Notes under the pieces: generated by a model
Database searches by the model: none
What the model saw: only the letters and a program-made list of their open reading frames with translations
Told to the model about the DNA's origin: nothing
Source of the DNA: Toxoplasma gondii ME49
Lineage: Eukaryota > Apicomplexa > Conoidasida > Eucoccidiorida > Sarcocystidae
DNA length: 64,000 nt
Direction: 5' to 3'
Assembly (NCBI RefSeq): GCF_000006565.2
Contig: NC_031471.1
Location: 496,001-560,000, forward strand
Shown: positions 4,635 through 62,676 of the stretch, one piece after another
How the letters are laid out: each line of letters starts with the position of its first letter
How positions within the stretch are numbered: the first letter of the stretch is position 1
Made by a program: the position numbers and the translations under genes

Positions 4635-7600
4635 ATGGACAGCGGTGCGCGCGCCTCAATGGCTCCGTCAGGCAGTCCTGGCTCCGAAAACGATGCAGAA
4701 GAGAAACGCGGAGACCCTGTTGCGCCCTTCGTCTGTGAAGAGACACCCTACATAGGCGGGGATTCAGAGTCCATACCCCAGAATGATGTTGGGACAGATG
4801 TGCAGACTGTGGCAGCCAGTGGCTTCACACTTGGCGTCACCTCCTGTGTACATAGAGCCCCCGATACTGTCTCCGAGCCTCTGCAGCCGCCGAGTGGATC
4901 CCTTGAGAGTTCGCGGTTCCCTTCCTCAGAAACGTGTTTGTCGCCGGCGGGCCGTGTCACCGGTGTGGCGGGGGCCTCGCACCGACTGGCCGCGGAGACA
5001 GGAGCCAGTCCGCGTGCAGGGTGCAGGCGAGAGCCAGCAGGCCTGGAGCCGGATTCGCTGCGTCTGGGCGCGGATGCCTGCGCCGGCGTTGAGCGGGACG
5101 GGCTGCGAGGGTCCAGTCCAGAGACGCTCGAAGAGGTGCTTTGTAAAAAGAGGACGGAGACCGCGGCGGCGAGGGACGCCGCTTTTTTCGAGCCTCCCGC
5201 TTCGCCCAAACCGGCGGGCGAGAGACCAGGCTGGGGGGCGAGGGGAGACCGAGAGAAGGGAGGAGACACGGTGGAAACGGGGAGGAACGGCTCTGGGGAC
5301 GCCAAAAAAGAGACGACCGGCCTGAACACTGTCGAAAGAACCGCACTGTCGTTGAACGTGATGAAAACGAACGTCTTCGTCTTCCAGATTCCTCTGTCTT
5401 GGGCAGAAGATGACCTGCACCAGGTACAGACAACAACCGAAGTCTTATGTATACATACGTTTCTGTTTACGTTTTTGTAGGCGTTTGAGGGGTTACACAT
5501 GAAAACCATAGGCCATGCTGGTACCGTGTTCCGTTTAGAGACACAACGCGTTGAAAGCAGGACGAGAGACGTGGTCTGTTCCGCGCTCGCGACAACGACC
5601 ACTGTGGCAAAGGTGTGATTCTAGGCAGAAACGTGTTCACCTGCCGGCATGCGTCGACCGCTCGTATCTGTTTGTGAAAGATACAGAAAGCTCTCTCTAT
5701 CTTTTCACCGTATGCTTTTCAGTCTGCAGTATTCTCTCACTCCCGCAGGACGCCGCTTGTGCTCTGCCCGTCGTGTAGGGTATACAAACACGTATGCATA
5801 TGTTCATGCGTTCCTGAGATGTTGTGTGCGTCTGCGATTCTTCAGCAATTCAGTGAATGGGGCACGATAACGAGTGTTCGCGTGGAGCGGAAGAGCGACG
5901 GTCGAAACCGAGGCTACGGGTTCGTTTGTTTTTCCGACGCCGAGAGCGCGCAGAGAGCGGTCGAGGGCATGGACGGTCGCGTGTTCGAGGGGAAACAACT
6001 CAAAGTCTCTCTGAAGAAGCCGCGACAACAGGAGCCGAGCGCCAGAGACGACGACAGGGGACAGGCCTCTCACGCAGTCTCTCCGGGGCGCGGGGGAGTG
6101 TCGCAGAAGGCCAGGAACGACGAGGTACGAGAAGAGAACGACATGGAGTCTCTGCCTGGAACGACGAGACCAGACTGCGAGAGAGGACGAAAAGGTGCAG
6201 GCGTGGGCCCGACACGCGGCGTCAAGTGCTCGCTTTTCGTCTTCCACGTGCCACCTCTGTGGGGAGACGAACAACTCTTGCAGGTAACCCGCAAAAATTG
6301 CGTTTGGAGTTGTCTGTCGCGTTATATGTGGAGTAGGCGTCGTAGGCTTCGCTGCTTCCTCTCAAGCGGTGTCCTGGGCTATCGTACAGCTTGGTTTCCC
6401 GTCCTCCCTAGCGGGTTCTCCGGCGCTCTGTGGAAGCTACGCTTTGTTATCTCACGAAAGATCCAAGGTGACTTGGATACGCTTTCAGACTATATTTATA
6501 TATGCATATATATATATACATATGCATTTACATATGCGTGCATGTTGCACGCGTTCTACTATTTCCAGAGAGGTTCTCATTTGAGCTCGGTTCCGGTATC
6601 AGAGTGGAACTTGGTAGGTCAGCGGGCAGGCCCTTTCACTGATTTTTTTCCTCGCCTTCAGTCACATGTGCAGTGCGCATACATGAGACTGTTGTCTGAC
6701 GTGTTCCTGGTTCCGTTCGCTGTGTCTCCGACTCCATCTTCTCAGCATTTTGAGTTGTACGGGCGGTGCGCGAGCGCCGTGGTGGTGCGGCGGCGAGACG
6801 GCACCAGCAAGGGGTACGGATTTGTCGATTTCGAGGACGCAGAGTCGGCGCTCTGTGCCCTCCAGCAGGCGAATCAAGCCCACGTGGACGGTAAGCGCCT
6901 GAAAGTGTTGCTGAAAACAGAGCCGAAGAAGCGGCCCTACGTGCATGCGGGCTCCTGCGCGTCTGCCGAGAGGGCTCCATACCCCCGGAAGAGCATGGAG
7001 CCTGCGTCCGGCGTTTCGTCGCTCCAGAGCCGAGAGCGAAGCAGCCTGGCATGCACGTCCAGTCAAGAGAGAAGCCGAAAGGGCGGCGTGCACGAGGAAG
7101 GCGACAGGCGAGGCAGCGTGGACGCGCGAGAGGCCGTCTTCGGGCCTCATGGAACGGCGTCGCCCCGCAGCAAGCCCGGTAGTGGGGACGAAGAGGCGAA
7201 GAACCAGGACGAAGAGTTGCGAGTCGCCTCTGCGCAGGCGCGGAGCCAGGCCGCTTCGCCCGAGCTCGAGCGAGAGAGACGTTACGGGTGCGGGGCTCTC
7301 CATCGACCCCGCTCGTCGCTGCCGCGTGGCAGAGGCGAAACTGAGGGCGACAGGCGCAGCGAGCGCTTCCACTCCGCCGGAGGGCGGGGCATTGGGGCCC
7401 TGAGAGGGACTGAAGGCGTCAGAGGACCGCGTCGTGGAGACGCCGTCTCCCAGATGGAGTCCTGCCCCCACTCGCGGCACGTCAGCGACGGCGGGACGAA
7501 CTGTGAGCGCGCTTTGGACGGAGTGCATGCGATTAGGAGCACAGGGCCAGAGGCGTTTCAACTCGATAGAGCCGCCGACTTCTCTTCGGGTCCTGCGAAC

Positions 7601-10600
7601 GGCCCTGAAGCCCGTGGGATCAACAGAGCCGCAAAGGCCCACCCGAGCAACTCGCGGAGAGACAAACTCGCGAATGCACGCTATGGCCGGCCCGAGTGCA
7701 CCGTCTTCGTTTTCCACGTTCCTCCAGAGTGGAGCGACGGGGACCTCAGAAGGGTAAGAGCGACTGGAGAAGCACGACCTTGGACGGAATCTGCAGTAGA
7801 TAAATGCATCTTGGATGACCGTGTATTCACGGCTTCATGTCAAAACACAAACATGCGAATGCTCGGTTCCCCAGAAAAGGAACATGACAGGACGACCATA
7901 AGTTCGTACTACACAGTCTTGCACAGCAGTCCATTAGGGCTCATTTTCAATCGGGGAAAGCGTGCTGCGGCCACTAGAGCACGCGTCTGGTCCTCATTAC
8001 GCGGGGAGGTGCCGAGAGAAAAGGAAGTGGACGAATCCTTTCAGTTTTTCCGCGAACGTGCCGTTTTTAGGTGCGGCGGTGCAGAAGGTAGAAACGTAAA
8101 CTTCCGTGGATCACTAAATACTTCAAAGCAACCCGAGGTGTGCTCGTACCGTGAAGGACTGGTGCAAGAGGCTTCACGAGGCCTCAAACCTAACCGTGAA
8201 TTGACGCATCGCGAGTTGAACTACGTAAATTGTATATCGAAAACTTGTGGGGACCGCCGCGCGTAGTCAGGATTGGGGGTGTGCTTTCTGTGCATGCATT
8301 CCTGTCGACTGGTGTCAGTTGTCTTGGTATTCTCTGCTTCAGTGTGCGTCGTTTGCTTTGCTGTTTGTGCTGTTTCTGTGTAGCACTTTCGACACTTGGG
8401 ACGCATCCGAGCGGCGACAATTCAGCGTGACAAAGATGACGGGCAGAGTCGCGGGTTTGGGTTCATCACATTTGGTTCGCCGGCCGCTGCACTCAATGCT
8501 GTCGCTGGGATGAACGGTTTCCACACGGGAAGCAAGTACTTGAAGGTGATGCTGAAGCACACGGACAGAGGCGACGGAAAGGCCGAGGGCGGTGCCGAAG
8601 GCCGGGAACATGAGGATCGAGAGAAGAGAGAGAAGCGCGAGAACAGACGAGAAGGTGAGAGGGTTGTACGCGATGAAACAGAGGAGACAGGAAAACGGGC
8701 CAAAACTGTCTGTTGTGTCCCCTGGAAGGGGCTCAATCTCGAAACGGTGAACAATGTGGTGTCGTTCGGCTCGGGTAAAACAATGTCTCCCTTTGAGGAG
8801 TGCTCTACGGAACGAAGAGTGCTGAAACACACTCAGAAGGACGAAGAAGAAGCCAGTGCATGTGCGAGCACTGTCCGGTGCCTTCTACTTCGTTTTTTGG
8901 TGTCTTCACCGTCAGTGGTAGAAACCAGAGCCGCTAGAGTTCCAGGTGTTTGTCTCGCCGTTTCTGAACCCTGCTTCCACAAGCGTCTTCTTTTGTTTGC
9001 CTTCCTGTGGTTCTTCTCTCTTTTCCCTTGAGTCCGCCCTTTTCGGCAGATGCCCTGTAAAGCTTCACCTGCGTCCACGTTTTGTTGGATCGTCGCGCGG
9101 TGCAGCGATCACATGTTTGTCTGCTCGACCCACGAATTATCTGTCTCTTCTTTGTTCTTCAGAAGGCCAGCCTGGGAGAGGGACAGGGCCCAGCGGCGTG
9201 AATCCGAGAGACAAAGACAGGGGCGAGAAAGGAGAGTGGCATGCTTCGGGACGCTTTGGCGGCTCTTCGGCGTTTCGGGGCATGCACCCCACACGCGACC
9301 GACCGGAAGGGCGGCGAGGGCCCAGAGGTGTTTACTCGGCTCCTCTGTCGGGAAAGGCGCTGGACTCTTCTGAACATCCCGCTTCGCTCCTTCCTGTCTC
9401 CGCGCTGGTGGCCCCTGGGGGCACTTGCCCCGGCGACCGGGCCGAAGTAGGCGGGATCCAGGCCCCGTCGCAGAGGCCCACTCAGAGGAGCGTTGGAGAC
9501 AGGCGGCGAGTGCCGGAAGAGCGGGTCATGCCTCTGCCCTCGCAACTTCCGTCTGCGTTTTCCGGCCCTGCTTACGGGACTCCCGCGTCTCTCGGAAACG
9601 CCCAGAGTCCCTCCCAGACGACGCCGGGGTGTGGAGACAGAACATTAGGCCTTCTTTGCGGAGGGCCTCAGGCCTTCCCCTTCTTGCCACCCGCTGGAGA
9701 CGCGAGAGTCGCCAGAAGCGGGAAGGGCCTTGGCCTTCACAACCACGCACGTCATGCGTCCCGAGCCTCTGGAGGCGCGGGGGTCTCCGGGATCCACCCT
9801 CAGCCCCTGCGAACGCAGGTACGGGCGGAGACCCATGAAAAGCCAAATGGAAAGAGAGATGGGCAAGACAGGAACAAGGGAGAGATGAAGGAAGCGCGAG
9901 ACAGTGGAAGCGGGGGAAGACAGGTGATAGAAAAAACTGCTGGAAGTTGCTTAAAGGTGGAGGGAATCACAGATGATACAGGGAAGATAAGAGAGAGAGA
10001 GAGGGAAGATGAGGAATGATGGCAAGGGTTACTAGACAGAAGATGGACGTGTTCTGTCTCAATCCGCAGAATAGGGCTGCAGGCCCTCGGCGCCTTTCAA
10101 ACAGGGCCTGTACACGTGTATCTGGATGTGGAGATATCTGGGTAGGAGAGAAGAGGCGACATGTACTGTGGAGAGAACTGTCATCTCTTAGGCATGTCTC
10201 TGTACATCTGGGTTTGTGCGTTGGGCGTGTCGTTGTGTCTTTTTAGGTGTGGTTGTCAAGCGCACCGCCGCCTCCGCCGCACCAGAAGCCTATGAATGCA
10301 GACAAAACGGTTTTCCTAACTCAGGCCCAGAGTGACTGTTTTGCCTGTCCGTCGTTAGCCACTGAAGCGACTCTGCCTACTCCGTACGGCCAGCCTTCTC
10401 TGTCTTCCCTGTGTTCTATGCATCGGCCGCCGATGCCGCACGACTGTGGGTCTCAGGCGGTTCCTGTAGGGTACCACGAAGGTGTGAACGATGAAGGAAG
10501 CATGCGATTGTCAGGCCTCGCGATGGGAGCTCCCGGAGGACAGCACGCGAGCGCGCGGGCGGCCTTTCTACACTCGCCTTTCCCTTCTTCTTCGTCTCCT

Positions 10601-52200: not shown

Positions 52201-52994
52201 ATCAACAGGAAGGATTTATTCTTTCTCTCGGACATGTCTAGACAAGCGTCCAGGGGTGGCACTGCACGAGTTTACGCCTCTTCATTCGTTCTTTTCTCTC
52301 TTGGAGGGTAACGCTAGGGGAAGCAAACAATGTTCCTACGGATGGGGAGGAGTTCTGTCGTTTTTCAGCCTCATTATACAACCTCTGCGTCACATGCACG
52401 ATCTGCCTCTTGCCACGTGTGCATGGACATTTGCACATACTTATATATGTATATATGTATATGTATGTATATATGTGTGTGTGTAACGAGTATGAGTGAT
52501 TAATGTGTAAGTAGGTGCAAGAGTTGCCACACTTGCTTTTTGTGTTTGTTTTCCACTTTTTTAGGGGCCACCGCGGCCCACATCGAGAGTCTCGGTACAT
52601 CCACGGTTATGGTGGTGCGACGGGCGCCGGGTTCGACGACTATCTCGCGGAGTGTGAACTGCAGAGAGAGTCAGCGAAGCGGAAGGAGTCACAGAAAACG
52701 GACGAGAATGAAAGCGCAAACAATGCCCAGGCCTCCTCGACGGTAGCTGCGTGTGAGAGTGTTGGCGAGGCTATGGAATTCTGCGAATTCAAACAGGGGG
52801 GTTGTCTGGGACACGACAGTACTTCCTTCAAAGAAGAAAAGACGCCGCAAGACAAAACCTCGAGTGGAAAGAGCGAACAGGCGACAGCGCGAGCTGCAGC
52901 AGACGCGATCGGTGCCGAGTTTACACGAAATATTCGCACAACCATGAATGTGCCAAATGCTCACCTTCGCCCTCACTGGCAGGTCCAGAACTGA
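49284..52994 (+). CDS. J-domain protein with one membrane segment
   Basis: Exons 49284-50261, 50859-51215, 51858-52030 and 52565-52994 join in phases 0, 0 and 2 and encode 645 aa. Residues about 13-75 form a J domain with the catalytic HPD (45-47, in LHPDKNGG) that stimulates Hsp70 ATPase; the segment around it is compact. Residues 148-173 are two copies of a 13-residue repeat (xFAAYARxHKETP). A hydrophobic stretch at about 191-208 (GGVAALLGVGFFGVFVLW) is a likely transmembrane helix, followed by a Lys/Glu/Arg-rich coiled-coil-like stretch. Exon 2 is Ser-rich. The C-terminus has an ordered-looking GYGGATGAGFDDYL motif and a charged tail without zinc-finger or DnaJ C-terminal domains, so it is a class C J protein. 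There is no clear N-terminal signal peptide. J domain plus membrane anchor suggests Hsp70 recruitment to a membrane (ER or mitochondrion); which membrane is not shown. Confidence 0.8.
49725..49802. repeat. Two tandem 39-bp coding repeats
   Basis: Two adjacent 39-base units differ at only a few positions (GGCTTC/GACTTC and GATCCC/GACCCC) and encode the 13-residue repeat in the J protein. High identity suggests recent slippage or duplication. Confidence 0.85.
52440..52484. repeat. Imperfect TATATGTA simple repeat
   Basis: Alternating TATATGTA/TATGTATG units followed by GTGTGTGTG in the last intron of the J-protein gene. Confidence 0.8.
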
Positions 52995-54948: not shown

Positions 54949-57900
54949 ATGGCGTTTGTCAAGGCGCTCAAGAACAAGGCGTACTTCAAGCGGTACCAGG
55001 TCAAGTACCGCAGAAGGCGACGTACGTGTTCCAGAAACAGATACCCCACCACGAAGTAGAGCGGGGATTTTTTTTGCACAGTGTTATGCTGGGGAGAAAT
55101 GCATGGCATCCGTGGAATAAATACCGTACTTTATAGGTACATCGGCGGTTCTTCCCTCTTCGGTGGTTGCGTGTTGTAACTCACGTCTGCTTTTTTGTCT
55201 CGTCCTTCCCCTACTTCAAGCACCTCGGACCCTCCGCCCCACGCCCCTGCGCCGGCTCCTCACTTTCCTGTGAATTTCTGACGTTCCTCTTACTGCCAAC
55301 GGGAGAGGAGGGAAAAAACACAGGACGTCGCCAGAAGAGGGGCGTTGCTGTGCTTTGTTTTTCCCGTGGAATATATGCGTGTCGAGTCCGGGTGTCCGGC
55401 CTCGGTCGGAATCGCGTGGTCCGTCATTTCCTTGTTTGCCAAGTGGACCTTGCTTTGTGTGTCCCTCCGTGTTTTCTATGTTTATTTTATCTCTTTCTCC
55501 GTAGGTTGACTGTGGTTCGTCATTTTGAAAGAATATTTCTGCACATGGAGTGCGACAAATGGAATATTGGCCGCGCTACAGGTCACGTGGTGCTCTGCGA
55601 TCGCCTATTTGTTTCCATCCCGTTTGTCCCGTCTATTCTCGAAAGTGCCCCTTTTTGCCTCTCCTTGGCTAGACTGTTCCTTCATACTCAAAACTGTCTC
55701 CGTGTTTCAGTGAATGGCGACTCTACGAGCAGGTGGACAGCCCGTTGATGGGGTATGTAGGTTACCTGTACTATGTGGGGGTGCTCTGTGGATATGCAAG
55801 TTCTAATTACTTTTCTTCAACCCAGCGCGTTTTCGTATGTACCTTTCTTCCGGTGTGTGACGGGCTTAGGGCGATGCGTGTGTGGTGTCTGCGTGCTCAT
55901 TGAAAGGGAGGTTCTAATACAGTTTTGACACCGTCGTTCGCTGCTGCCCCTTGGCTGCTGATCTCTTCGGAGTGTCGGCGGCCTTGTTGAGGCGCGTGTT
56001 CGTCAGCAGAGCTGTTTTGCGCCTTCCGAGAATATCTAGCCACCTTAAACCGACAAATGCTGACTGTTCTCCACAGCTTTCTTTGTCGACCTGTCGGCGG
56101 CGACAACTGACTTCATGCGCAGACGATTGTGCAGCCGTGGTTTGTCATTTGCAGTTACAGCCTACCACTTGTGTGCGTGGATTCGGACATGCTTTCGTGA
56201 AAGCCTGCCGAGATCGTTGCGGCGATTGGTGTTTCGCCTTCTGTGAATGCTGGCATCTGTCTTTTGCCTGTGCCTGTCATGCAGAGGGTAAGACTGACTA
56301 CGCGGCCCGTCGTGCCTTGGTCCTCCAGGACCGCAACAAGTACAATGCACACAAGCACCGCCTGGTGGTGCGGCTGACAAACAAGCGGATCATTTGCCAG
56401 GTAGTCTACTCCACCATCGAGGGAGATCGTGTCCTCGCCACCGCAGAGTCGACCGAGCTGCCTCGCTATGGCGTCAAGATCGGCCTGACCAACTATGCGG
56501 CTGCCTACTGCACGGGGCTCCTCCTGGCCAGACGCGTGCTGAAGCAACTCGGCATGTCTGAGACCTTCGAGGGGGTCGAGGCCACCGGGGAGGAGTACCA
56601 CATTGAGGAAAACTTCGGAGAACGTCGCCCGTTCAAGGTTCTCCTTGATGTCGGCATCGTCAGAACTACCGTCGGTGAGTCCAGCTGTTTAGCCCCCGCA
56701 TATGGCAGCTTCTCGGCGTCTCTAGAGAGAAGCGAATCGGGTGGAAGCGTCTGAGGGCTCTCTGGTGCGAAGACGGGTGTAAAGCGCGTCGCTGATGATT
56801 TCTCTCAATCAAGCTCAACACTGTCTGAGCACCTCCGCGGTGCATGTTGAGACTTAACATCTTCTTTCCCCGACTGAAGGCGCTTAGCTAGTCTTTTGCT
56901 TCGTTTTCCAGGTTGTTTCTTCCGCGGGTCTGCTCTCGAGGTTTTCCCCAAAGATCACTCTGACGCCCTTGCCTGTCCTGTAGAAGTGTTTCTTCTTTTG
57001 TGTTCGAAGGATCTTTCGAATCTTCTTCGCGCGGCTATATGAACCTCTTACATATCGATGCATCTCTTTGTTTAGTATCTATTCAATTGTTGCCGTCGAC
57101 ACGCTGCCATGTGAGGTCCTTCCTCGTGACGCGTGGGCAGAAGAAAGAGTACAGAATCGACCTGTGATTTCGTCGCATCCTGTTTTCCTCTCAGGCAACC
57201 GCGTCTTCGGTGCGATGAAGGGCGCTGCTGACGGCGGCCTGCATGTTCCGCACGGTATCAAGAAGTTCCCAGGCTACTCCAAACCCGAGGGCGAAGGCGA
57301 AGGCTCGTACGACCCTGAGGCCCACCGCGCCCGCATTTTGGGTCTGCACGTGGCGGACTACATGCGTCAGTTGAAGGAGGAAGACCCCGAGAAGTACAGC
57401 GCCCAGTTCTCTCAGTACATCAAGAACAAGATCGAGGCTGACGACATCGAGGCCATGTACAAGAACGCACATGCGCAGATCAGGAAGAACCCCGACGCGG
57501 TCAAGAAGGAGAGAGCCGCCAACGTCCAGAACGTCCGACAGGGCAACGTCATCAAAACGGCCAAGGGCCAGTACGTTCGCCACGTGAAGTTGACCAAGGC
57601 ACAGAGACGCGAACGTGTACAACAGAAGGTAAGAGGAGAGGGAGAAGAGATTCAGGGTTTGTGAAGAGCGTCGGTGTATGTCAGCAATGCGAGACTGCCC
57701 GGCGCTGTTACGATATCGCGAGGCGGAACAATGCGCTCTCTGCCAAGAGAACGTAGGCGGGCCTCATTTGATTTTTACGCTGTCTCGTTTCTGATAATGG
57801 TCGTGCTCACCCGAACTGGGGCTTTCCGGGTGCGTTTTCTGCTACACGCATATATGAGCATGTCTGTTTTTTCAGTGAATGGAGAGGTGCAGGAGGAAGT

Positions 57901-57977
57901 TTTGGAATTCGTGGCCGTGTGCTTGTGTTTGTTTTCTACAGATCGCCATGATTGCGGAGCAGATGGCTGAGGCATAA
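54949..57977 (+). CDS. RPL5: 60S ribosomal protein L5 (uL18)
   Basis: Coding exons 54949-55021, 56285-56674, 57195-57628 and 57942-57977 join in phases 1, 1 and 0 and give 310 aa, close to the eukaryotic norm of about 297. uL18 binds 5S rRNA and, with uL5, delivers it to the large subunit. The N-terminus ([17 protein letters not shown], then an RRRR patch) and [61 protein letters not shown] and [11 protein letters not shown] are diagnostic. The short last exon encodes [11 protein letters not shown]. An acceptor at 54945 implies a 5'-UTR intron. At the first junction the spliced codon is CAG (Gln) where most eukaryotes have Glu or Asp. Intron 2 hosts a C/D snoRNA. Intron 1 is long (1263 bases) with no clear content. 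Confidence 0.97.
56782..56885 (+). ncRNA. Intronic box C/D snoRNA in RPL5 intron 2, two LSU guides
   Basis: Seen: box C CTGATGA at 56792-56798, C' ATGTTGA at 56844-56850, D CTGA at 56874-56877. D' is CTGT at 56821-56824 (or CTGA just after it). A terminal stem pairs AAGCGC (56782-56787) with GCGCTT (56880-56885). The D' guide TCAAGCTCAACA (56809-56820) is the exact complement of the conserved LSU stretch UGUUGAGCUUGA. The D guide TCTTCTTTCCCCG (56860-56872) complements CGGGGAAAGAAGA, which lies only a few bases upstream in the same rRNA. The fifth-base rule predicts methylation of a G in each. The host is a ribosomal-protein intron, a classic snoRNA site. The rRNA sequence is recalled from yeast/human. 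Box C lacks the usual purine in first position. Confidence 0.78.
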
Positions 57978-59110: not shown

Positions 59111-59204
59111 GAGAGGAATCATGATGATCCAAAACGGATTTTATAAATGGGTAATTTGCGTCTGACGCTTCTGATGCTACAATCCAATATTCTGATTTCC
59201 CCTC
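59111..59204 (+). ncRNA. Box C/D snoRNA, SSU rRNA guide
   Basis: Seen: box C ATGATGA at 59121-59127, D' CTGA at 59162-59165, D CTGA at 59192-59195. A terminal stem GAGAGGAA (59111-59118)/TTCCCCTC (59197-59204) has seven of eight pairs. The D' guide TGGGTAATTTGCG (59148-59160) complements the conserved SSU sequence CGCAAAUUACCCA over 13 bases, ending one base before the box. The fifth base upstream of D' pairs with the first A of GCAAAUU, an adenosine I recall as methylated in other eukaryotes (U16/snR87-type target). The guide next to D has no target I recognise. Confidence 0.78.
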
Positions 59205-59695
59205 TTCGTTGTCAACCGTGATCGTTCTCTTGTCGGTTTCGTATCTTATGTTTCACCTCATGTATCTCCTCTGTTGCTTGCTGCGGCTCCGTTCTCGCGG
59301 CGGCCTGCAGTAGGTGCATCAGGCGGCCGTCTTCGAGGTTAGACTGCGAGCATTGAAGGTGCCTATGCGCTTCTGGCCCGCCTCCGACTTCGTGTTCGGA
59401 AAGCGAATCAATGGCGTGCACTTCCGGTGTCAACAGTCACGATTGTCTCGTCTGGGATTCGTCAGTAGTGTTTCGTGTGTTGCGTTCCTGTCTCGTATCT
59501 GCTGTTGTCTATGAGAACGTTTCTCCTTGTTTAGTTTTACCCTGTCTTCATGGTGCCATTGACTGATGACCTAGTTCTACCCCTGACACCTCTTGATTGA
59601 GTCGGTGGCGTGGGCTCGCTCGCGCCGTCCCTGATCGGAAAAATGAACGAAGTGTCTGACCTTTGGCCACCAAGTTTTGTGTAAACGTTCTCAGA
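59205..59695. other. Spacer between two snoRNAs
   Basis: No supportable gene. It is locally GC-rich around 59280-59400, with an imperfect hairpin GGCGGCCTG/CAGGCGGCC (59300-59327). A C-box-like CTGATGA at 59563 has no convincing partner boxes or guide and was rejected as a snoRNA. Confidence 0.4.
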
Positions 59696-59813
59696 GCAGT
59701 CAAAACCAGAACTTAGTGATGAGACGTTTCTTTACCATCTTTCGGGGCAGATGGAGGCCCTCGTGGGTCTTAATGTTGATTACTACTTCCATGACTCTGA
59801 CTTCTGGGACTGC
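59696..59813 (+). ncRNA. Box C/D snoRNA, LSU rRNA guide
   Basis: Seen: box C GTGATGA at 59716-59722, D' CAGA at 59748-59751, C' ATGTTGA at 59773-59779, D CTGA at 59797-59800. The terminal stem is long: CCAGAA (59706-59711) pairs with TTCTGG (59802-59807), and GCAGTC (59696-59701) pairs with GACTGC (59808-59813) across an AAAA bulge. The D' guide ACCATCTTTCGGG (59734-59746) is the complement of the conserved LSU CCCGAAAGAUGGU over 13 bases. The fifth base upstream of D' pairs with the G of CCCG, the position I recall as Gm805 in yeast 25S. The D-side guide is an orphan. Confidence 0.82.
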
Positions 59814-60878
59814 TCATACATGGAGGCGTGCTGTTATTTAGTCCACAAGTCCTTTGTGTGTTAGTGCTGCTATGCTACTGCTTGCGTGTTTTAGATCTGT
59901 TATTTGTTCCATCCAGTGAAGTCAGAAGCACCTGGTATACATTTGTCTGTACAGGTTGCTCTTGGGTCACTGGTAAAGCATAGGCGGGGTGTTGTGTTAT
60001 TCATCACATGGGGGAGCTCTAATACACTTGCTCCCCATATGAGTGGCTCTACCTCACACGAATTTTTTTTCTGTTGCATGCTCCCTGTGGAGGTTGCAAA
60101 TCCGTCTGTTTTCACGCTTCGTTTCCGTTATACCTGCAGTAGCTTGACCTCAAGTCCTATCTCGTCTGCCGTGTTTGCGTTTGATAACCAACCAGTGCAG
60201 TTGAGAAACCATCGCGAGGTTAGATGGAAGCTGGCTACTTCGGCATAGTTGGGGGGGCCTGCTTCTCACACGGGCCACCCTTGGAAATCGTCGCCCATAA
60301 AAGACACTTTCCAAATAAATGCGTCCTTTTCTGTCTAGCCACCATAGCGGATGAGAATCTACCCAAAATTAAGGAAGTGCCGTCTGATCTGGTGCCTCCG
60401 GGTTACCTAGTTGATGAGGGAACACTCTGATACACTAATGACACTTGGTGGCTATTATGATTTTATCGCTCTTAATGGCCGTTTCTTCCGTGCGCTTAGT
60501 GGCTGTGTATCAGCAGTCTTACTTCTCGTTGTTCCTTTCTACTGTGTAATTCCCAGGGTTTACATGTCGATGTCTTCTTGGTGTTCCGTCATGTTCATAT
60601 GTAGTTCACGAGTGTGACACGTCGGACCGGGCGCAGGTGTTCGCGTTTACTCGTTAAATGTATGGGCATCTGCATCGCGCGTCGCACTTCTCGCGTGTTA
60701 GAATAACCATTTGAGGGATAAAGTTGAGACCTAGCTCGCCTTTTTTTGGCATTGCCTCGCTTTGTCTCCGTTCCCCCCTCTCACACGCGAAATAAACTGT
60801 TGCTGAATTTTGTCGTGGATTTCAGTTGTAGATGTCGGAATATCTGGTTGTGTTTTTGTGTGGATGACGTGGTCTACG
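59814..60878. other. Spacer within the snoRNA cluster
   Basis: About 1.06 kb with short plus-strand frames (59904-60248, 60224-60430, 60411-60617) that match no known protein. Isolated C-box-like words (TTGATGA at 60411-60417; GTGATGA on the minus strand at 60007-60001) lack partners. Further H/ACA RNAs could be present, but I could not establish any. Confidence 0.35.
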
Positions 60879-60963
60879 CGGCAGCTGGTGATGATTCTCT
60901 TAATTGGTCTGTGTTTCTGAGAACACACATGCGGCTAACATAAACGAGTCTGACAGTCTGCCG
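60879..60963 (+). ncRNA. Box C/D snoRNA, probable LSU rRNA guide
   Basis: Seen: box C GTGATGA at 60888-60894, D' CTGA at 60917-60920, D CTGA at 60950-60953. A perfect 6-bp terminal stem pairs CGGCAG (60879-60884) with CTGCCG (60958-60963). The D' guide TTGGTCTGTGTTT (60904-60916), directly against the box, pairs over 13 positions with the conserved LSU AAACACGGACCAA, with one G-U pair. The fifth-base rule points to an A in AAACA, which I do not recall as a known site. The D guide is unassigned. Confidence 0.68.
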
Positions 60964-61665
60964 ATCGCAAGTAACTCCGTTTGTTACATGGAGGTTCTGG
61001 ACGCGAATTGCAACTGTTCATCTAGCCCAGTGTTCAGTGTTTTTATTACATTCCATCCGCTTGCCACCCCACGGGTACGGTCTGCTCGCACGTGCGACCA
61101 TTTGGTTGCTATGTCAAACGACAAATCGTGTGTCTGCATCTAACCCACCCATGGGAGACGGATTTTTCTTTTGTCGCCCGCAGTGCTCGGTGCGTCTGCG
61201 CAAACAAGTGGGCACTGCGTTGAATCTCAAGAGGACACTCAGCTTTGTTCGTCAAGAAGTGCGTGCCAACTTGATTGAGGTGTCTGTGTGCGAAGATGCG
61301 CGTTTCTTGCGTAGAACTCTTTTGTCATACGATGAATGTGCTGATCAGTGTGGTGTGTGTCCGTAATATGCGTGGAAAATGGAATGTGCCGAGGATGATT
61401 CAAGTTCTACAATCACGACGGTCTGCTGACTTGTGGGCCCCAAGACATTGGTGGCTTTCAATGGAGAGAGTAGAACTTACTGACAGAACACTTTCCAGCT
61501 CCTGTTGCACCCACGTTCGTTTCTTTGGTGCCCGACACGTTTTATGTGCTGTGAAAGCCAACTGATTTCTTCTGGATAAACGCATATCGGCAATTACGAA
61601 ACGGAACCAAAGAGTAGGTTCTGTCGGCGAAGTTCGAGACGTTCGCCTTTTCAGTGACGCGAGCT
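60964..61665. other. Spacer within the snoRNA cluster
   Basis: No supported gene. A C/D-like arrangement at 61376-61495 (AGGATGA, CTGA at about 61427 and 61479, stem GGAATGTG/CACTTTCC) has no guide that pairs convincingly with rRNA, so it is left out. Confidence 0.35.
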
Positions 61666-61756
61666 GCGGATCTAGTGATGACCATCTTAGGACACCCACG
61701 ACACATATTTGTGTATGAGTTGCCTATGTTATTCGTACTGCCTGAAAAGATCCCGC
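61666..61756 (+). ncRNA. Box C/D snoRNA, probable LSU rRNA guide
   Basis: Seen: box C GTGATGA at 61675-61681 and D CTGA at 61742-61745. A terminal stem pairs GGATC (61668-61672) with GATCC (61749-61753), extended by GC/GC across a one-base bulge. The internal guide CTTAGGACACC (61686-61696) complements 11 bases of the conserved LSU GGUGUCCUAAG. The D' box that should follow reads CACG/CACGA, a poor match. If it is used, the fifth base pairs with a U, in a stretch where I recall 2'-O-methyl-U in yeast 25S. The D guide GTTATTCGTACTGC is unassigned. Confidence 0.58.
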
Positions 61757-61798
61757 AACTGCGTTCTGGACGAGGACCAACTTTGGGTTTGTTTCCAA

Positions 61799-61894
61799 CC
61801 TCACAGAAGGATGACGCATTTGACCATCAAATTCTGAATGGTAAACACCACGTGTGTTCAACCTTTACTGCTTACCAAAGCTGATACTGTGGGG
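61799..61894 (+). ncRNA. Box C/D snoRNA, tandem paralogue A, LSU guide
   Basis: Seen: box C AGGATGA at 61808-61814 (one mismatch), D' CTGA at 61834-61837, D CTGA at 61881-61884. An 8-bp terminal stem pairs CCTCACAG (61799-61806) with CTGTGGGG (61887-61894), with one G-U. The D guide CTGCTTACCAAA (61868-61879) complements the conserved LSU UUUGGUAAGCAG. It is clearly related to the next snoRNA: the segments ACCATCAAATTCTGAATGGT and CTGCTTACCAAA are shared. Confidence 0.68.
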
Positions 61895-61964
61895 AACCAT
61901 TGTGGTTTGTTATGTTGACAAGTGACAATTCTATTACTTAGTTGGCTTGTGTACATATTTGTCT

Positions 61965-62056
61965 GTTGGTCAATGATGAGGAGACGACCATCAAATTCTG
62001 AATGGTGGACACACGAATGTGGTCAACTCAACTGCTTACCAAAACTGATAGTCGAC
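61965..62056 (+). ncRNA. Box C/D snoRNA, tandem paralogue B, LSU guide
   Basis: Seen: box C ATGATGA at 61973-61979, D' CTGA at 61998-62001, D CTGA at 62045-62048. A weaker terminal stem (GTTGGTCA/TAGTCGAC) uses G-U pairs. The D guide CTGCTTACCAAAA (62032-62044) lies directly against the box and complements 13 bases of the conserved LSU UUUUGGUAAGCAG. The fifth base pairs with the first G of that stretch. The D' guides of both paralogues share ACCATCAAATT, with no target recognised, so that arm is conserved but orphan. Confidence 0.7.
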
Positions 62057-62159
62057 ACTGTGGAAGGTAAAATGCTCTTGGGATGCTTTTTTATTTTGCA
62101 TAGTCGTACAAGCGTGAACCGGAGCACGTCGCCGACTGCTTGGATTTAACCTCGTTGAA

Positions 62160-62273
62160 CCAGGGGAATGTCTGATGATGAAACTATTCCACACAGACCT
62201 GTTCTGAAGTCAAGTACGGCTTATGTGGAGAACAACAGCGCGAATTCTCTGATTTCAGTAGACTATCCCCTGG
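62160..62273 (+). ncRNA. Box C/D snoRNA, SSU rRNA guide
   Basis: Seen: box C ATGATGA at 62175-62181, D' CTGA at 62204-62207, D CTGA at 62249-62252. The terminal stem is strong: CCAGGGGA (62160-62167) pairs exactly with TCCCCTGG (62266-62273), and GTCT (62170-62173) pairs with AGAC (62260-62263) inside it. The D' guide CACAGACCTGTT (62192-62203) lies directly against the box and complements 12 bases of the conserved SSU AACAGGUCUGUG. The fifth base pairs with the first G of AACAGG, a stretch I associate with the U25/snR56 target. The D guide is unassigned. Confidence 0.82.
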
Positions 62274-62515
62274 TGCGTCTTCCGTTGTGTTACTTCTTTG
62301 TGTTCTATCTGTTCTTGTTTGACGGGTGAGCTGCTGTCAGGTGGTCTTTTACGTATGCTGTTCTGAACTGCGTGTCCATGTGTCTCGAGTTCGTGTGGTG
62401 TGTGCTTTGCGGATGTAATCAGTGACACCTCTAACTACTTGGTAGCCATATGGCATGCGTTGTTCATTCTGTGGAATTGGTGACTCGCAGAAGCTGCGGT
62501 TATTTCCTACAGGTG

Positions 62516-62676
62516 TGGCCATCTCATTGGGCTATGGTGCCGTGCAAAGTCTGATGCGCGACAGCCAAATCAGAGACGGCCAGAATATCATTCCGAGTTA
62601 ATCGCAGGTGCCCCAAGCATGCGGGCTCGGCTTCGGCATGTATGGGGTGTTTCTGTTTCATGCCTCGGCGACATCG
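62516..62676 (+). ncRNA. Box H/ACA snoRNA, LSU pseudouridylation guide
   Basis: Seen: the 5' hairpin is closed by TGGCC (62516-62520)/GGCCA (62578-62582), with TCTC/GAGA above; H box AGAATA at 62582-62587; ACA at 62671-62673. The 3' hairpin has a lower stem CCGAG (62593-62597)/CTCGG (62664-62668), a pocket, then an upper stem starting GCAG (62604-62607)/CTGT (62653-62656) and continuing with CCCC/GGGG and GCATG pairs. The pocket arms TTAATC (62598-62603) and TTCATGC (62657-62663) pair with the conserved LSU GCAUGAA-UG-GAUUAA, placing the unpaired U exactly where the pseudouridine should be. Upper stem to ACA is 14 bases, as the family requires. Yeast has this rRNA sequence; human differs by one base. 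The 5' hairpin pocket has no recognised target. Confidence 0.72.

What the first reader, a model, noticed from the sequence alone, without database searches (positions are those of the whole stretch)
59111..62676. Cluster of rRNA-guide snoRNAs downstream of RPL5
Within 3.6 kb on one strand there are six C/D loci plus a tandem paralogue and one H/ACA RNA. Each has boxes, closing stem and a guide (11-13 nt, or 7+6 nt for H/ACA) adjacent to the box and complementary to conserved SSU or LSU rRNA. One specific 12-mer is expected in about 5.5 kb of rRNA with probability near 3 x 10^-4, so repeated hits in the correct register are very unlikely by chance. Spacing is only 42-242 bases between the last five, suggesting a polycistronic precursor or lncRNA host. 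I am not aware of an annotation of this cluster, but cannot check.
Basis: partly seen in the sequence, partly recalled or inferred. Interest (0 to 1): 0.88.

Follow-up and report, generated by a model that had tools for sequence, protein, structure and literature searches.

The report
Guide-RNA gene cluster beside RPL5
Next to the gene for ribosomal protein L5, this Toxoplasma-type parasite carries a row of about a dozen small RNA genes that look built to direct chemical marks onto its ribosomal RNA, and part of the same row sits beside the same gene in malaria parasites.

Summary
Ten box C/D snoRNA genes (two a tandem pair) and one H/ACA candidate lie on one strand within 3.6 kb downstream of RPL5; an eleventh C/D candidate lies in an RPL5 intron. 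C/D guides pair with this organism's own 18S/28S rRNA (one with an inner mismatch). Rfam C/D matches, all below gathering scores, overlap nine of the ten, all on this strand; three have E below 0.01. The other 57.5 kb of the window gave one weak snoRNA match.

Part of the cluster is already known from Plasmodium falciparum, where PFS10-12 flank RPL5 and PFS8, 9 and 13 flank neighbouring RPL7a (PMC2656528). Five of those six sites are served here, against one of the other twelve published snoRNAs (P = 0.004). RPL7a lies on another contig here.

Ordinary guide function is the best reading (0.92); a shared precursor is likely but untested. The H/ACA member is weakest: its LSU target stretch is missing from the assembly, though attested in plant 25S. 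No expression data were available. New genes of a known kind; the interest lies in the conserved linkage and a few unusual predicted sites.

The parts
56792..56877 (+). I: C/D candidate in an RPL5 intron; D' (CTGT 56821) guide TCAAGCTCAACA and D (56874) guide TCTTCTTTCCC pair with neighbouring LSU stretches; D site = yeast LSU G2395, the snR190 site (numbering recalled)
   Evidence: stem AAGCGC/GCGCTT; 12 and 11 bp without mismatch; both guides at those scores in 4 of 500 shuffled rRNA sets. Weakest C/D member by single-guide test (83 of 300 decoys reach it); no Rfam match
59121..59195 (+). A: C/D, D' guide TGGGTAATTTGCGT to SSU A437 (yeast A436; U16/snR87/PFS11 site)
   Evidence: (snoZ101, 31.8 bits, E 0.0078), 48, 65, 92, 93: 13 Watson-Crick pairs plus 1 wobble; 17 of 18 nt identical to P. 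falciparum PFS11; 9 of 300 decoys
59563..59659 (+). J: C/D candidate, D' (TTGA 59597) guide CTGACACCTCT to LSU AGAGGTGTCAG, predicted site yeast G2791 (snR48/U60 site, recalled)
   Evidence: (TtnuCD16 59577-59636, 18.2 bits, E 3.8), 49, 85, 93: extended stem GGTGCCA/TGGCCACC; 24 of 500 shuffled rRNA sets reach the guide score
59716..59800 (+). B: C/D, D' (CAGA 59748) guide to LSU CCCGAAAGATGGTGAA (yeast G805; snR39B/PFS8 site); D guide to LSU GGTCATGGAAGTCG (about yeast A1240, no known site recalled)
   Evidence: (ceN70, 19.1 bits, E 2.1), 49, 65, 72: stem CCAGAA/TTCTGG; 1 of 300 decoys
60348..60430 (+). C: U49/PFS9-like C/D; guide AAGGAAGTGCCGTC; C box CGGATGA; D' CTGA 60384
   Evidence: snoZ7, 22 bits, E 2.4; 14-nt exact match to PFS9, its longest in 115 kb; GCCACCA/TGGTGGC closing stem; own LSU CGGCTCTTCC: 10 pairs with one inner mismatch. 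Missed by the scanner at its first C-box cut-off
60888..60953 (+). D: U18/PFS13-like C/D, D' guide to LSU AAACACGGACCAA (yeast A649)
   Evidence: SNORD18, 25.7 bits, E 0.18; 12-nt exact word with PFS13; 7 of 300 decoys
61392..61483 (+). E: PFS17/U35-like C/D, guide to LSU TAGACCGTCGTGA (PFS17 site, yeast C2959 in PMC2656528); C box AGGATGA
   Evidence: plasmodium_snoR20, 36.5 bits, E 3.8e-4; 14-nt exact word; 7 of 300 decoys
61675..61745 (+). F: U58-like C/D; D' guide TCTTAGGACACC to LSU GGTGTCCTAAG; D guide TATTCGTACTG to LSU CAGTACGAATA (yeast U2729, recalled)
   Evidence: searches (SNORD58, 25.1 bits, E 0.059; own LSU contig), 65, 93: degenerate D' box; stem GGATCT/AGATCC; D guide score reached by 35 of 300 decoys
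61808..61884 (+). G1: C/D, D' guide to SSU U121, D guide to LSU TTTTGGTAAGCAG; C box AGGATGA
   Evidence: 8 of 300 decoys; no Rfam match
61973..62048 (+). G2: tandem paralogue of G1 with canonical C box, same two guides
   Evidence: (snoR116, 19.9 bits, E 4.2), 10, 49, 65, 72: 0 of 300 decoys reach its score
62175..62252 (+). H: U25/snR56/PFS10-like C/D, D' guide to SSU AACAGGTCTGTG (yeast G1428)
   Evidence: snR56, 48.3 bits, E 1.6e-4; 12 of 300 decoys
62582..62673 (+). H/ACA candidate: H box AGAATA 62582-62587, 3' hairpin 62593-62668, ACA 62671-62673; guides TTAATC and TTCATGC to LSU GCATGAA-U-G-GATTAA (yeast psi2314/snR86 by recalled numbering)
   Evidence: 3' hairpin z -2.35; missed at the first stem cut-off; perfect bipartite match, top of 13 hits in 115 kb at a looser cut-off, with the target added beforehand; stretch attested in plant 25S. 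Against: whole 62524-62674 folds no better than shuffles (z 0.42); 5' hairpin not settled
56287..57977 (+). RPL5 (uL18) exon 56287-56673 and later exons; stop codon TAA 57975-57977
   Evidence: PF17144; the 129-residue exon translation aligns identically with 5xxb_D

Best explanation
A cluster of rRNA-modification guide genes. Each C/D RNA folds its C and D boxes into a kink-turn, binds the 15.5K/Nop56/Nop58/fibrillarin core and places 2'-O-methyl on the rRNA base five positions upstream of D or D'. The H/ACA RNA would hold LSU rRNA in its 3' pocket for pseudouridylation. Most likely the downstream genes are cut out of one long precursor. A separate non-coding transcript is favoured over RPL5 read-through, because in P. 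falciparum RT-PCR joined PFS11 to PFS12 but not RPL5 to PFS11. Shown here: boxes, stems, guides, own-rRNA targets (C/D), shared families and partial linkage with Plasmodium. Inferred: expression, RNP assembly, modification, shared precursor.
For: Own-rRNA complementarity in register; 9 of 9 tested loci against 0-5 of 9 in 300 decoy sets; all 11 Rfam matches are C/D families on one strand of the cluster region, against 1 snoRNA among 9 matches in the other 57.5 kb; guides shared with P. falciparum snoRNAs, 14 of 18 of which were detected as RNA; five of six target sites of the P. falciparum RPL5/RPL7a locus present, P = 0.004; RT-PCR of a PFS11-PFS12 precursor in Plasmodium.
Against: No match passes an Rfam gathering score, and six of the 11 have E of 1 or more. 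C boxes of C, E and G1 (GGATGA) and of I and J (CTGATGA) depart from RTGATGA; D' boxes of B, F, I and J are degenerate. U49-like C has a mismatch inside its duplex. I, J and F are weak one by one. The H/ACA target stretch was not found in the assembly, and the whole H/ACA stretch folds no better than shuffles. Of 8 C/D members folded, 2 had z below -2. The Plasmodium paper found no RPL5-PFS11 read-through product. No RNA data.
Confidence: 0.92

Rival explanations
1. Only some members are working genes: the Rfam/Plasmodium-supported ones (A, D, E, F, G, H, and probably B and C) are real, while I, J and the H/ACA candidate are chance look-alikes.
For: I and J guide scores are reached by 83 of 300 and 24 of 500 decoy sets; the H/ACA target was not found in the own assembly and its whole stretch folds no better than shuffles.
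Against: I has two guides to neighbouring LSU stretches (4 of 500 decoys); the D+5 bases of I (D guide) and J and the H/ACA uridine fall on sites recalled as modified in yeast; J and the H/ACA candidate lie inside the cluster on the same strand.
Confidence: 0.3
2. The genes are transcribed one by one from their own promoters rather than from a shared precursor.
For: Most gaps among the first members are 346-531 bases, room for promoters; eight of the compared yeast snoRNAs are monocistronic (PMC2656528 discussion).
Against: All on one strand; J and B lie 36 bases apart and the last six members 47-255 bases apart; the Plasmodium PFS11-PFS12 pair shares a transcript.
Confidence: 0.3
3. The matches are chance complementarity in non-coding DNA.
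For: Single scan scores as high as the best here arise with shuffled rRNA.
Against: Joint test, one-strand Rfam matches and long words shared with Plasmodium snoRNAs point the same way by largely different routes.
Confidence: 0.02

Closest known systems
P. falciparum RPL5/RPL7a snoRNA loci (PFS8-PFS13; Mishra et al. 2009, PMC2656528)
   Same: C/D snoRNAs downstream of RPL5, one in an RPL5 intron, PFS11 and PFS12 on one precursor; sites of PFS8, 9, 10, 11 and 13 all served in the window cluster
   Different: Here ten downstream C/D genes plus an H/ACA candidate; PFS12 not found by exact word; PFS17 (RPL18 intron in Pf) included; sites of the Pf RPL7a flank lie beside RPL5; RPL7a is on another contig; the intron candidate has other guides than PFS10
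Polycistronic snoRNA clusters of plants
   Same: Several guides on one strand at short spacing
   Different: Different members and location; no transcript shown here (comparison from PMC2656528, and recall)
Trypanosomatid mixed C/D and H/ACA clusters
   Same: Both classes together (PMC2656528 discussion)
   Different: Not reiterated repeats here: one place matched in the own assembly

Membership tests
Box C/D snoRNA | C box RUGAUGA and D box CUGA | tested here: met
   D exact in 11 of 11; C exact in 6 of 11, one change in 4 (E, G1, I, J), two changes in 1 (C)
Box C/D snoRNA | Closing terminal stem | tested here: met
   3 to 8 pairs for 10 of 11 by scan or inspection; E only with bulges and mismatches (inspection)
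Box C/D snoRNA | Guide of 10 nt or more upstream of D or D' complementary to own rRNA | tested here: met
   for 10 of 11; C (U49-like) has 10 pairs with one inner mismatch
Box C/D snoRNA | Expression and fibrillarin binding | not testable with these tools
Box H/ACA snoRNA | H box, ACA box, 3' hairpin with pocket about 14-16 nt from ACA | tested here: met
   upper stem ends 62656, ACA starts 62671 (distance rule recalled)
Box H/ACA snoRNA | Two-hairpin structure | tested here: inconclusive
   whole stretch z 0.42; 5' part 62506-62586 alone z -1.32
Box H/ACA snoRNA | Bipartite complementarity around a uridine of own rRNA | tested here: inconclusive
   Perfect 7+6 match to a stretch attested in plant 25S; a 19-nt pattern from that stretch was not found in the own assembly
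Homologue of the Plasmodium RPL5/RPL7a snoRNA locus | Same guides or sites beside the same ribosomal protein gene | tested here: met
   5 of 6 locus members against 1 of 12 others, P = 0.004; for PFS8 the match is by site, with only 8 nt identical

The most novel reading that the evidence does not exclude
A guide-RNA set linked to RPL5 (and RPL7a) that predates the split of coccidians and haemosporidians and has kept the linkage while exchanging members, so that ribosomal protein and rRNA-modification output come from one locus. In this parasite it also guides methylation at bases not known to me as modified in yeast (LSU about G1126 and A1240 in recalled yeast numbering) and uses a GGATGA C box in three of eleven members.
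Probability: 0.4. Interest if true: 0.6.

Novelty: new member of a known kind. Interest (0 to 1): 0.45.

Why it matters
It would give a set of Toxoplasma-type C/D guides with named target bases, which RiboMeth-seq could test in one experiment. It would also show that linkage of snoRNAs to RPL5 is old within Apicomplexa, and that sub-threshold Rfam scores hide real snoRNA genes in such genomes.

Tried and rejected
PFS12 (SSU A974) homologue: its target is in the own SSU, but two exact guide words were found in no held sequence other than rRNA. Further members: a relaxed scan of 55.6-66.5 kb added only weak hits at 64053-64163 and 59511-59566, and an alternative frame of E; not accepted. A 14-nt PFS18 word near RPL7a on the minus strand has no D box after it and was rejected as chance. 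For PFS8, PFS10 and PFS11 the longest exact word in 115 kb lay outside the cluster; only alignment restricted to the loci shows those matches. Of the 18 PFS, 16 were given to (PFS14 and PFS16 were not). The H/ACA scan at upper stem 5 missed the candidate; it appeared at 4. sought more LSU rRNA in viral contigs and found none; (plasmids, phages) gave archaeal plasmid rRNA and nothing.

Literature: search listings only, rows seen of papers found: 20 of 115; 15 of 104; 15 of 185; 25 of 2,117; 0 found; 13 of 13; 12 of 1,793. Passages were seen in PMC12309372, PMC10138883, PMC3453492, PMC3979661, PMC12246861, PMC12235521 and PMC3292489. In what I saw, no Toxoplasma snoRNA gene locus was described. 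PMC3453492 says that snoRNAs were among the T. gondii small RNAs identified and filtered out; PMC12246861 lists five C/D and four H/ACA snoRNAs of Cryptosporidium parvum. Of PMC2656528 I read the abstract, methods, the first two of three parts of the results and the first of two parts of the discussion. The library holds open-licence papers only; ToxoDB annotation could not be seen.
Full report
Where it is. The window is G000:C5:496001-560000 of a 65.3-Mb assembly of 1959 contigs. RPL5 lies on the + strand (PF17144). One exon translation (129 residues) aligns identically along its length with chain 5xxb_D, a uL18, which I recall as the Toxoplasma gondii 60S structure; I take the species to be T. 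gondii or a very near relative. The RPL5 stop is at 57975-57977 and the first downstream snoRNA starts about 1.1 kb later.

What is there. C/D genes: A 59121-59195, J 59563-59659, B 59716-59800, C 60348-60430, D 60888-60953, E 61392-61483, F 61675-61745, G1 61808-61884, G2 61973-62048 and H 62175-62252; and I 56792-56877 in an RPL5 intron. An H/ACA candidate follows at 62582-62673. All lie on the + strand. A DNA search with the cluster matched one place in the own assembly.

Targets. I fetched this organism's own rRNA contigs. They cover SSU except a short stretch near model positions 1167-1202, and LSU except stretches around model positions 1395-1688 and from 2152 to the start of L033; a contaminant eukaryote, L007, served as proxy for part of these. 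Guides found in own rRNA: A to SSU A437; G1/G2 D' to SSU U121; H to SSU AACAGGTCTGTG; B D' to LSU CCCGAAAGATGGTGAA and D to GGTCATGGAAGTCG; D to AAACACGGACCAA; G1/G2 D to TTTTGGTAAGCAG; E to TAGACCGTCGTGA; F D' to GGTGTCCTAAG and D to CAGTACGAATA; J to AGAGGTGTCAG; I to TGTTGAGCTTGA and GGGAAAGAAGA; C to CGGCTCTTCC with one inner mismatch. Yeast equivalents for A, B, D, E and H follow PMC2656528; the rest are counted on recalled yeast sequence and should be checked.

Is it more than chance? Scan scores of 15 or more: six in the cluster, none in the rest of 85 kb on both strands; decoy rRNA gave means of 0.45 and 0.775. At 14 or more the real figures were 7 and 3, the decoys 1.6 and 2.1; at 12 or more they were 9 and 9, the decoys 5.7 and 13.7. 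So the scan alone is only moderately decisive, and a likely false hit of 16.7 appeared near RPL7a. The fixed-box joint test was 9 of 9 against at most 5 of 9 in 300 decoy sets, with the caution that loci were chosen with the same rRNA and that C and J were left out. Rfam, which does not use this rRNA, gave 11 matches of 11 to C/D families in the last 6.5 kb, all on the + strand, against one snoRNA of nine matches in the first 57.5 kb. The best are snR56 (E 1.6e-4), plasmodium_snoR20 (E 3.8e-4) and snoZ101 (E 0.0078); SNORD58 and SNORD18 follow at 0.059 and 0.18; the other six lie between 1 and 4.2. Two of the 11 (DdR1, snoU25) overlap the snR56 match, so the 11 stand for nine places: the genes A, B, C, D, E, F, G2 and H, and a stretch within J. 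None passes gathering.

Link to Plasmodium. In P. falciparum, PFS11 and PFS12 lie downstream of RPL5, PFS10 in its last intron, and PFS8, PFS9 and PFS13 downstream of RPL7a (PF14_0231, numbered next to PF14_0230). PFS11 and PFS12 share a transcript by RT-PCR, RT-PCR from RPL5 to PFS11 gave no product, and 14 of 18 snoRNAs were detected by northern blot or RT-PCR. The window cluster serves the sites of PFS8, 9, 10, 11 and 13 and, in addition, PFS17: five of six from that locus against one of twelve others, hypergeometric P = 0.004. Sequence identity in the guide region is strong for PFS9, 11, 13 and 17, moderate for PFS10 and weak for PFS8 (8 nt). Of 16 PFS searched for their longest exact word in 115 kb, those of PFS9, 13 and 17 fell on cluster genes; an 11-nt PFS2 word fell between G1 and G2, and the rest lay elsewhere. 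RPL7a, identified from its exon translations, is on another contig here. Its neighbourhood shows a pair of matching C/D candidates 883 bp apart and one candidate in what looks like its last intron, with no Rfam snoRNA match at E <= 3. So the theme of RPL5 and RPL7a with snoRNAs in an intron and in the 3' flank may be shared, while members have moved.

Mechanism. The anatomy is that of ordinary C/D guides, with D+5 placement of 2'-O-methyl, and a 3'-pocket H/ACA guide. B, F, G1, G2 and I carry two guides each. The GGATGA C box (C, E, G1) changes a base that I expect, from general k-turn knowledge, to be tolerated; the G2 copy of the same RNA is canonical. A shared precursor is favoured by strand, spacing and the Plasmodium precedent, but not shown here.

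Verdict. Real, and ordinary in function: new genes of a known kind. The interest is the linkage shared with Plasmodium, the size of the cluster and a few predicted sites not recalled from yeast.

Noticed in passing
L043 306-387, 1687-1753, 2570-2636 (G000:C9 about 1655306-1657636): C/D candidates in the apparent last intron and 3' flank of RPL7a, two of them matching copies 883 bp apart, with 11-13 bp guides to own LSU (the intron one to a proxy LSU); Rfam shows no snoRNA there at E <= 3.
   Followed up: partly
L001 1-133: An IMG/VR 'viral' contig begins with about 130 bp matching eukaryotic LSU rRNA, followed by other sequence that I did not analyse; probably a chimera.
   Followed up: no
L002-L008: Seven GTDB genome contigs carry eukaryotic-type rDNA (L002 only 5.8S by Rfam), presumably contamination; L005 also has two group I introns.
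   Followed up: no
L013 against L014-L017, L019: One short SSU contig has GCGCAGATTACCC where others have GCGCAAATTACCC, next to the predicted A437 methylation site; perhaps an assembly error.
   Followed up: no
window 52419-52489 and three other places: Rfam mir-297 matches below gathering; perhaps simple repeats, not examined.
   Followed up: no
window 5759-8266: ORF with an RNA recognition motif, two matched stretches (PF00076).
   Followed up: no
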